From Cylindrodendrum hubeiense (Eukaryota > Ascomycota > Sordariomycetes > Hypocreales > Nectriaceae), in the NCBI GenBank assembly GCA_014621425.1, contig JAANBB010000020.1:186001-250000 (forward strand): DNA of 64,000 nt. Reading direction: 5' to 3'. The notes beneath the pieces were generated by a model that ran no database searches, was not told where the DNA came from, and saw only the letters and a list, made by a program, of their open reading frames with translations. The position numbers were made by a program, and so were the translations under genes. Position 1 is the stretch's first letter; the number at the start of each line of letters is the position of its first letter. Positions 25,011-26,155 of the stretch are shown here, piece after piece.

Positions 25011-25139
25011 AGCAATTTGGCGCAGTGGAAGCGCGGTATGTTGTCACCTTGGAACTACGATTCGAACCCGAGTAATGACTAACTTATCCTAGCCGGGCTC
25101 ATAACCCGGAGGTCGCACGATCGAAACGTGCAATTGCTA
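25011..25139 (+). tRNA. Initiator tRNA-Met (CAU) with an mRNA-type intron between positions 26 and 27, copy 1
   Basis: Exons 25011-25035 and 25093-25139 join to a 72-nt initiator tRNA. Acceptor AGCAATT pairs perfectly with AATTGCT plus A73; the D stem is GCGC/GCGC; the anticodon stem is CCGGG/CCCGG with loop CTCATAA (CAU); the variable loop is AGGTC; the T stem is GCACG/CGTGC with loop ATCGAAA. The A1-U72 pair, three G-C pairs closing the anticodon stem and an AUCG T loop are eukaryotic initiator hallmarks. The 57-nt insert 25036-25092 begins GTATGT, contains CTAAC 9 nt before its end and ends TAG, that is spliceosomal consensus, not the usual 37/38 tRNA intron. T-runs at 25161-25165 and 25170-25175 can end Pol III transcription. 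Internal A and B boxes are intact in the exons. Confidence 0.82.
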
Positions 25140-25160
25140 CACCCTCAATATGAGGATTTC

Positions 25161-25175
25161 TTTTTGCCATTTTTT
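25161..25175 (+). terminator. Pol III T-run terminator after tRNA copy 1
   Basis: T5 at 25161-25165 and T6 at 25170-25175, starting 22 nt after the tRNA 3' end, are the usual Pol III stop signal. Confidence 0.5.
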
Positions 25176-25230
25176 ACTAATTGATATCCTGTTTTCGCCC
25201 TCAAGCGAATTTAAACTCGAAGATCTATTA

Positions 25231-25268
25231 CTAACTTGTCATTTTGGCCAGGCTCATAACCCGGAGGG
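25231..25268 (+). pseudogene. Fragment of the intron-bearing initiator tRNA
   Basis: The fragment reads CTAACTTGTC...GGCCAG followed by GGCTCATAACCCGGAGG, matching the 3' end of the intron (branch site and AG) plus the anticodon arm and variable-loop start of the two full genes. The D arm and T arm are missing. It is a broken third copy. Confidence 0.55.
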
Positions 25269-25993
25269 TGAACCTTGCCATTCGGCTCAGAAAGTTTGAA
25301 TTGTTGAAAAAGATTCCAAAAACCGCACGGTCAAACTAGAATCTTCACATTATAAAGTCATCTCAAGACGTTGGAGCATTTCTTTGAGTTGCGGCAGGAG
25401 TCAGCGGGATTCAGGTCATCTAGTCCAGAACTCCGGCATCGGAGGGCCTTCAGAGGTCGTCCCTCTCATCATCAAGTATCAGACTGACCCTCAAACCATC
25501 GTTAGATATAGAAACTAAGAGCCTTAATCCCCATAACCCTTTACTTGATGAGATAAAAAGGATTTCAAGTGCCCGTATTAACTACTCTACCTCTACTTTA
25601 AAAGCCCACCTGCTGGCCTTTCCCGGCTATGGCTTTCGGTATTTTATCCATCTACGGATCTTTAGGTGGCACCCGTGTCGCGCAGGGCTAGCAGAGACGT
25701 CACCAAAATCAACAAGAACCCAAAATCAAATCAAGTACTTGTAGTATGACTATTATAGCGATCGCAAGCCTATTGAATTAAGCAATATCGTTAGAAATAA
25801 ACGTGATCTCCTGGTTACCGAGACACCAAAATCGGGTTGACCCCCAAAGAGGGTGCTTGGAGCAATACGACCGAGGCCTTAAATGGGCGACATGCTATTG
25901 TGTGACTCACAGCTTACTCATCAACTTGAGCTGGATGTGGCACCGATGCGGGCTGATATAGTGGATTATGGAAGTCAACTCCCAATCAGCTAA
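25269..25993. other. Intergenic between tRNA copies
   Basis: No gene. The sequence upstream of the second tRNA copy does not resemble that upstream of the first, so the pair is not simply a recent long tandem duplication. Confidence 0.4.
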
Positions 25994-26119
25994 AGCAATT
26001 TGGCGCAGTGGAAGCGCGGTATGTTATCACCTCAAACTCAATATGATTTGAGCCACGACTAACTTATCCCAGCCGGGCTCATAACCCGGAGGTCGCACGA
26101 TCGAAACGTGCAATTGCTA
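25994..26119 (+). tRNA. Initiator tRNA-Met (CAU) with an mRNA-type intron between positions 26 and 27, copy 2
   Basis: Exons 25994-26018 and 26073-26119 are identical to those of copy 1 and fold to the same 72-nt initiator. The 54-nt intron 26019-26072 keeps the splice-signal ends of copy 1 (GTATGTT.TCACC at the 5' end, ACTAACTTATCC.AG at the 3' end) while its middle has diverged. That pattern, conserved donor, branch point and acceptor around a drifting core, argues that the splice signals are under selection. A (TG)7 tract and a T6 terminator (26150-26155) follow. Confidence 0.82.
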
Positions 26120-26149: not shown

Positions 26150-26155
26150 TTTTTT
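26150..26155 (+). terminator. Pol III T-run terminator after tRNA copy 2
   Basis: T6, 31 nt after the tRNA 3' end; the (TG)n tract separates them. Confidence 0.5.

What the first reader, a model, noticed from the sequence alone, without database searches (positions are those of the whole stretch)
25011..26119. Two initiator tRNA-Met genes interrupted by spliceosomal-type introns at position 26/27
Seen: both copies have identical exon halves that fold to a complete initiator tRNA only after removing a 57-nt or 54-nt insert between the D stem and the anticodon stem. Both inserts begin GTATGT, carry CTAAC shortly before the end and finish in AG. Their ends are conserved while their cores differ. 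Known: nuclear tRNA introns of fungi lie at 37/38 and are cut by the tRNA splicing endonuclease; mRNA-type introns are known in another Pol III gene, U6 snRNA. Inference: these tRNAs may need the spliceosome or a Pol II transcript, linking translation initiation to splicing, or they are a mobile or decaying tRNA-like family.
Basis: partly seen in the sequence, partly recalled or inferred. Interest (0 to 1): 0.88.

Follow-up and report, generated by a model that had tools for sequence, protein, structure and literature searches.

The report
Initiator tRNA genes with mRNA-type introns
In this filamentous fungus every copy found of the gene for the tRNA that starts protein synthesis is cut in two by an intron of the kind normally found in messenger RNA, so starting protein synthesis may depend on the mRNA-splicing machine.

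Summary
Two genes (25011-25139, 25994-26119) encode the same 72-nt initiator tRNA-Met, interrupted at 26/27 by 57- and 54-nt inserts with GTATGTT, CTAAC and YAG. The 47.5-Mb assembly holds six such genes on four contigs: identical exons, inserts of 54-59 nt, nearly unrelated flanks; plus two relics. Four searches found no uninterrupted initiator gene. Across all six, the inserts share little beyond donor, branch-site and acceptor blocks, and their variants (CTAAT, TAG) fit the fungal consensus. The genome's other introns use these signals, and one of its two U6 matches over the cut-off carries an mRNA-type intron too. A T-run (likely Pol III terminator) follows all six genes. Probable elongator Met genes have ordinary anticodon-loop inserts. 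No strict bulge-helix-bulge formed. Best explanation: a Pol III precursor whose intron the spliceosome removes, making the initiator supply splicing-dependent. A B-box-like sequence in three of six introns is only suggestive. No RNA data and no related genome were available. The listings of ten literature searches showed no spliceosomal intron in a nuclear tRNA gene; U6 and U3 are the closest known cases.

The parts
25011..25035 (+). copy 1, exon 1 of initiator tRNA-Met (positions 1-26; A box 25018-25028)
25036..25092 (+). copy 1, 57-nt intron GTATGTT...CTAAC (25079-25083)...TAG
25059..25069 (+). B-box-like GATTCGAACCC inside the copy 1 intron (candidate only)
   Evidence: score 7.5 of 8.5, core-shuffle P about 0.009
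25093..25139 (+). copy 1, exon 2 (positions 27-73, anticodon CAT)
25161..25165 (+). T5 run, likely Pol III terminator of copy 1 (T6 at 25170-25175)
25230..25268 (+). decayed relic: branch-site-like ACTAACTTGTC, CAG and the anticodon arm of exon 2; no exon 1 recognised
25994..26018 (+). copy 2, exon 1
26019..26072 (+). copy 2, 54-nt intron GTATGTT...CTAAC (26059-26063)...CAG
26073..26119 (+). copy 2, exon 2
26150..26155 (+). T6 run, likely Pol III terminator of copy 2

Best explanation
These are functional initiator tRNA-Met genes, two of a six-gene family that is the only source of initiator tRNA found in this assembly. Each is transcribed by RNA polymerase III as a precursor whose tRNA arms can already fold, with the 54-59 nt intron standing out as an extra arm between the D and anticodon arms. 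The U2-type spliceosome removes the intron as it does from mRNA and from U6: GUAUGU donor, RCUAAY branch site, YAG acceptor. Shown: the anatomy, six copies, the conservation pattern, failure to find an uninterrupted gene, match to the genome's own splice signals, T-runs. Inferred: Pol III transcription, removal by the spliceosome, and essentiality.
For: Six genes, 72 of 72 exon bases identical, all with the insert. No uninterrupted gene found: GGCTCATAACCC gives 10 exact hits = 6 genes, the window relic and 3 unrelated sites; CTCATAA-N15-ATCGAAA with up to 1 mismatch gives 19 hits, 0 of 19 with an uninterrupted acceptor stem; the D-arm pattern gives the 6 genes plus 2 one-mismatch sites; BLAST with the joined 72-mer gives 12 pieces, two per gene, all breaking at the junction. 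Invariant insert columns: 7 of the first 7, 11 of the last 15, 3 of the 37 between. Variants obey the fungal consensus RCTRAY/YAG (PMC5832005 passages): one CTAAT, one TAG. Genome-wide GTATGT..CTAAC..AG: 1078 matches against 443 for the pattern read backwards. One of two U6 matches over the cut-off has a 58-nt GTGAGT..ACTAAC..CAG intron. A T-run of 5 or more starts 22-31 nt after all six genes; 3.2% of random 45-nt stretches of the window hold one.
Against: No RNA data of any kind. One genome only; no relatives are held, so conservation across species is untested. Copies 3-6 are 60-75% alike in the core, above shuffles, so they are not independent evidence. The intron ends can also pair with each other (GGUA.GUU/AAC.UAUC, 41 of 42 cells paired, no two-sided change), so part of their conservation could be structural. 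The exonic B box is weak (5.5 of 8.5; 20 other tRNA genes sampled here score 7.0-8.5) and lies 86-91 nt from the A box (counted), near the upper end (93 nt) of the yeast range (PMC5356446 passage). A draft assembly of 798 contigs may lack genes.
Confidence: 0.78

Rival explanations
1. A non-canonical tRNA intron removed by the tRNA splicing endonuclease and ligase, the conserved ends being a structural element that pairs.
For: Intron ends can pair in 41 of 42 cells. Introns at odd positions, including 25/26, exist in archaea, and odd positions occur in a red alga and in nucleomorphs (PMC4090602 passages). This genome has anticodon-loop inserts in other tRNA genes.
Against: No 4-bp central helix with 2-4 nt bulges forms at either register in any of six copies (best 3 of 4 pairs). 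In the pairing above, the donor junction lies inside a helix, not a bulge. ACT before the helix strand and AG after it are unpaired yet invariant in six of six. The variants follow the splice consensus.
Confidence: 0.1
2. The six are pseudogenes and the true uninterrupted initiator gene is missing from the assembly or too divergent for the searches.
For: Draft genome of 798 contigs. The A. niger table lists 72-nt CAT tRNA genes without introns, initiator or elongator not stated (PMC6108506 passages).
Against: Six copies with nearly unrelated flanks keep identical exons and splice signals, while two relics here have visibly decayed. The genes of a multi-copy family are unlikely all to fall in gaps.
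Confidence: 0.06
3. [quoted passage not shown]
For: mRNA splicing is normally coupled to Pol II (general knowledge); weak exonic B box.
Against: A box intact and T-run 22-31 nt downstream in six of six; a U6 gene, a Pol III gene by general knowledge, is interrupted in the same genome.
Confidence: 0.05
4. A tRNA-derived mobile element family (SINE-like).
For: Dispersed copies and two relics.
Against: No shared body outside the tRNA except one upstream pair (copies 4 and 5, 84% over 176 nt) and short stretches at the trailer; only six copies; identical exons.
Confidence: 0.01

Closest known systems
mRNA-type introns in fungal U6 snRNA genes (S. pombe and others)
   Same: GT, branch site and AG in a short Pol III gene; one U6 gene of this genome shows it. 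That the S. pombe U6 intron holds a B box is recalled, the paper was not held.
   Different: U6 is a spliceosome part, for which reverse splicing has been offered as an origin (recalled); a tRNA is not.
mRNA-type introns in fungal U3 snoRNA genes
   Same: Canonical spliceosomal signals in a small structured RNA; in the vast majority of the Pezizomycotina analysed (PMC5832005 passages).
   Different: Not a tRNA; that paper (2017) calls U3 and U6 the only small structured RNAs known to be often interrupted by an intron.
Canonical eukaryotic tRNA introns at 37/38
   Same: Intron inside a tRNA gene; present in this genome, e.g. probable elongator Met genes with 31-32-nt anticodon-loop inserts.
   Different: Other position, no GT start in the two examined, cut by an endonuclease rather than the spliceosome.
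Non-canonical tRNA introns of C. merolae, nucleomorphs and Crenarchaeota
   Same: Position outside the anticodon loop, some at 25/26 (PMC4090602 passages).
   Different: BHB-dependent, or of unknown removal; 'spliceosom' occurs 0 times in that review.
[quoted passage not shown]
   Same: Initiator tRNA interrupted (title in a reference list).
   Different: Self-splicing and bacterial; group I introns are 250-500 nt (start of the PMC10964413 abstract), these inserts 54-59 nt.

Membership tests
U2-type spliceosomal (mRNA-type) intron | GT donor of the host's consensus | tested here: met
   GTATGT in six of six; GTATGT is the commonest GT hexamer before CTRAC..YAG in 235,890 bases of this genome, 14 against 5 and 0 in two controls, the window genes included and some loci overlapping; 1078 against 443 genome-wide
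U2-type spliceosomal (mRNA-type) intron | RCTRAY branch site 6-36 nt before the acceptor | tested here: met
   ACTAAC in five, ACTAAT in one of six, branch A 10 nt before the last G; consensus and range from PMC5832005 passages
U2-type spliceosomal (mRNA-type) intron | YAG acceptor | tested here: met
   CAG five, TAG one of six
U2-type spliceosomal (mRNA-type) intron | Removed as a lariat by the spliceosome | not testable with these tools
   no RNA data
tRNA-endonuclease intron | Canonical position 37/38 | tested here: not met
   insert at 25/26 or 26/27
tRNA-endonuclease intron | Bulge-helix-bulge at the junctions | tested here: not met
   central 4-bp helix in 0 of 6 copies, both registers, bulges 2-4 nt; relaxed forms without the central helix not tested
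Eukaryotic cytosolic initiator tRNA-Met | CAT anticodon, A1-U72, GGG/CCC in the anticodon stem, A54-T55-C56 in the T loop | tested here: met
   A54U55C56 as initiator mark in a PMC3978253 passage; other marks, and the three yeast and mould sequences compared, are recalled
Pol III type 2 gene | A box, B box, T-run terminator | tested here: inconclusive
   A box TGGCGCAGTGG and T-run in six of six; exonic B box weak
U6-like intron-borne B box | B box inside the intron | tested here: inconclusive
   uncorrected core-shuffle P 0.009, 0.28, 0.33, 0.039, 0.11, 0.034 for copies 1-6 and 0.030 for the U6 intron; in copy 5 the best site is a different one

The most novel reading that the evidence does not exclude
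The whole initiator tRNA supply of this fungus depends on the spliceosome, so translation initiation is gated by mRNA splicing; and the intron is kept because it also carries the B box of the Pol III promoter, making it both the promoter and the part that must be removed.
Probability: 0.3. Interest if true: 0.94.

Novelty: new variant of a known kind. Interest (0 to 1): 0.84.

Why it matters
Nuclear tRNA introns are taught as spliceosome-independent; a 2026 review says so outright (PMC13149111, passages seen). If the spliceosome excises this one, the separation of the two splicing systems is not absolute, an essential tRNA becomes a spliceosome substrate, and splicing could limit translation initiation. 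Tools that do not expect it miss or misname the genes, so initiator tRNA genes may be absent or mislabelled in other fungal annotations.

Tried and rejected
Rejected: chance, mobile family, strict bulge-helix-bulge intron. Led nowhere: GTATGT alone as a genome pattern; scans of viral contigs (108 stretches, taken as chance matches to a 14-base pattern and not studied; 0); SRP RNA (one match of 286 nt, no insert) and RNase P RNA (422 nt; its printed sequence was only looked over and no intron recognised) as further interrupted Pol III genes. The RF00005 search scored 63 of 1339 candidates, 59 of them over the cut-off, so it is no full tRNA inventory, and other tRNA genes with such introns are not excluded. 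Species: two protein searches suggest Pezizomycotina, class unsettled (best named hits Xylogone sp. 69%; Ilyonectria robusta 89%). One search aligned copy 4 on the wrong strand and was replaced. The B-box idea is kept only as a possibility because three of six copies show no significant match.

Full report
Check of the observation. The two window genes are exactly as described. Extraction gives exons of 25 and 47 nt and inserts of 57 and 54 nt. The joined exons give an initiator tRNA-Met: CAT anticodon, A1-U72, GGG/CCC anticodon stem, ATCGAAA T loop. Rfam and ARAGORN report nothing in the window; with introns allowed ARAGORN finds the six genes but names them Asp, Val (four) and Leu, which shows how annotation would hide them.

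Whole genome. The window is C113:186001-250000 of a 47.5-Mb, 798-contig assembly. A DNA search finds six full copies: C113 two, C23 two in opposite orientation, C13 one, C135 one. Exons are identical in all six and every copy has an insert: 57, 54, 59, 56, 56 and 55 nt.

Is there an uninterrupted gene? Four searches found none. (a) GGCTCATAACCC: 10 exact hits, being the six genes, the relic at window 25251 and three unrelated sites. (b) CTCATAA-N15-ATCGAAA with up to one mismatch: 19 hits against 17 for the backwards control; 7 exact, being the six genes and a decayed copy at C23:69119(-). Testing stems around all 19, 0 of 19 have an uninterrupted acceptor stem (best 3 of 7 pairs). (c) GCGCAGTGGAAGCGC with up to one mismatch: the six genes and two one-mismatch sites, whose surroundings I did not read. 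(d) BLAST with the joined 72-mer: 12 pieces, two per gene, all breaking at the junction. Limits: the assembly is a draft, and these searches could miss a very divergent gene.

What is conserved. In alignment A2 21 of 59 insert columns are invariant: all 7 of GTATGTT, 11 of the last 15, and 3 of the 37 between. Core identity is 43-75% between pairs, against 46-51% for shuffled cores; the six pairs among copies 3-6 are at 60-75%, above shuffles, the other nine at 43-58%. Copies 3-6 also share TTCGAAAACTAA before the branch site, so part of their likeness is common descent. Upstream flanks are unrelated except copies 4 and 5 (84% over 176 nt); downstream, a few pairs share 20-56 nt at the trailer.

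Host splice signals. GTATGTN{25,55}CTAACN{3,15}AG occurs 1078 times against 443 for the pattern read backwards (overlapping matches are counted more than once in both). In 235,890 bases of this genome GTATGT is the commonest GT hexamer before CTRAC..YAG, 14 against 5 and 0 in two controls, the window genes included and some loci overlapping. The inserts thus look like the host's ordinary introns.

A parallel in the same genome. The U6 search scored 47 of 2596 candidates; two lie over the cut-off. C450:12981-13083 is uninterrupted and C41:36727-36888 carries a 58-nt insert, GTGAGT..ATACTAAC..CACAG, next to the ACAGAGA region. The one SRP RNA match shows no insert (286 nt). So mRNA-type introns in Pol III genes occur here, as known for U6 in fungi (titles in the reference list of PMC5832005; Canzler 2016 itself was not held).

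Transcription. All six genes have the A box TGGCGCAGTGG and a T-run of at least 5 that begins 22-31 nt after the last exon base, preceded by a small predicted hairpin (-4.8 to -8.6 kcal/mol). The exonic B box CGATCGAAACG scores 5.5 of 8.5, while 20 other tRNA genes sampled from this genome score 7.0-8.5; the recalled N. crassa initiator has the same 11 bases, so the weak box may be usual in this group. With the intron the A-to-B gap is 86-91 nt (counted); yeast genes span 31-93 nt (PMC5356446 passage). Inside the introns are B-like sites at a closer distance: GATTCGAACCC in copy 1 (P 0.009 by core shuffle, uncorrected), GGTTCGAAAAC in copies 4 and 6 (0.039, 0.034), none significant in copies 2, 3 and 5 (0.28, 0.33, 0.11), and CGTTCGAGCCG in the U6 intron (0.030). 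I recall that S. pombe U6 has its B box in the intron; the paper was not held. This is a lead, not a result; copies 3-6 are related and not independent.

Precursor fold. In 5 of 6 unspliced precursors the MFE keeps all 21 cloverleaf pairs with the insert as an extra arm or arms; in copy 4 it keeps 17, and enforcing all 21 costs 2.2 kcal/mol. The intron ends can pair (41 of 42 cells), without any two-sided change.

Endonuclease rival. A central helix of 4 pairs with 2-4 nt bulges forms in 0 of 6 copies at either register, best 3 of 4 pairs; relaxed forms were not tested. The conserved ACT and AG lie outside the end pairing and are still invariant. Two CAT tRNA genes at C134 and C422, probably elongator Met (my reading of the sequence), have 31-32-nt inserts in the anticodon loop with no GT start, so ordinary tRNA introns coexist in this genome.

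Literature. Ten searches of open-access PMC papers list at most 20 papers each; no listed title or abstract start reports a spliceosomal intron in a nuclear tRNA gene. Passages (not whole papers) were seen of PMC4090602, PMC11782384, PMC6108506, PMC3978253, PMC5832005, PMC5356446, PMC7279448, PMC13149111 and PMC8450103. Most subscription papers are outside this library, so the claim of novelty is limited to it. In A. niger two CAT tRNA genes are listed as 72 nt without intron, which suggests, without proof, that the intron is not general in Pezizomycotina.

Verdict. The genes are real, the inserts have the sequence marks of spliceosomal introns that can be tested without RNA, and no intron-free alternative was found. 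It works like the U6 case and is filed as a new variant of mRNA-type introns in Pol III RNA genes, in an RNA class, nuclear tRNA, for which I found no such report.

Noticed in passing
G000:C41:36727-36888(-), L210: U6 snRNA gene with a 58-nt mRNA-type intron; a second U6 gene (C450, L209) is uninterrupted and has a different 5' stem-loop.
   Followed up: partly
window 25230-25268: Relic of an initiator tRNA gene between the two intact copies: intron 3' end and anticodon arm only.
   Followed up: partly
G000:C23:69119-69147(-), L058/L083: Second relic, a decayed exon 2 next to the C23 pair of intact genes.
   Followed up: partly
G000:C23:67000-76000, L058: Two intact initiator genes in opposite orientation about 330 bp apart beside five tRNA-Ser(GCT) genes, three of them with 11-12-nt anticodon-loop inserts and two without.
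   Followed up: no
L065, L066 (C134, C422): CAT tRNA genes, probably elongator Met, with 31-32-nt anticodon-loop inserts; ARAGORN calls them Leu and Val.
   Followed up: partly
3' flanks of all six initiator genes: Small predicted hairpin between the tRNA 3' end and the T-run, of different sequence in most copies.
   Followed up: no
G000:C48:16868-17289, L213: RNase P RNA match of 422 nt against a 301-position model; the extra length was not explained.
   Followed up: no
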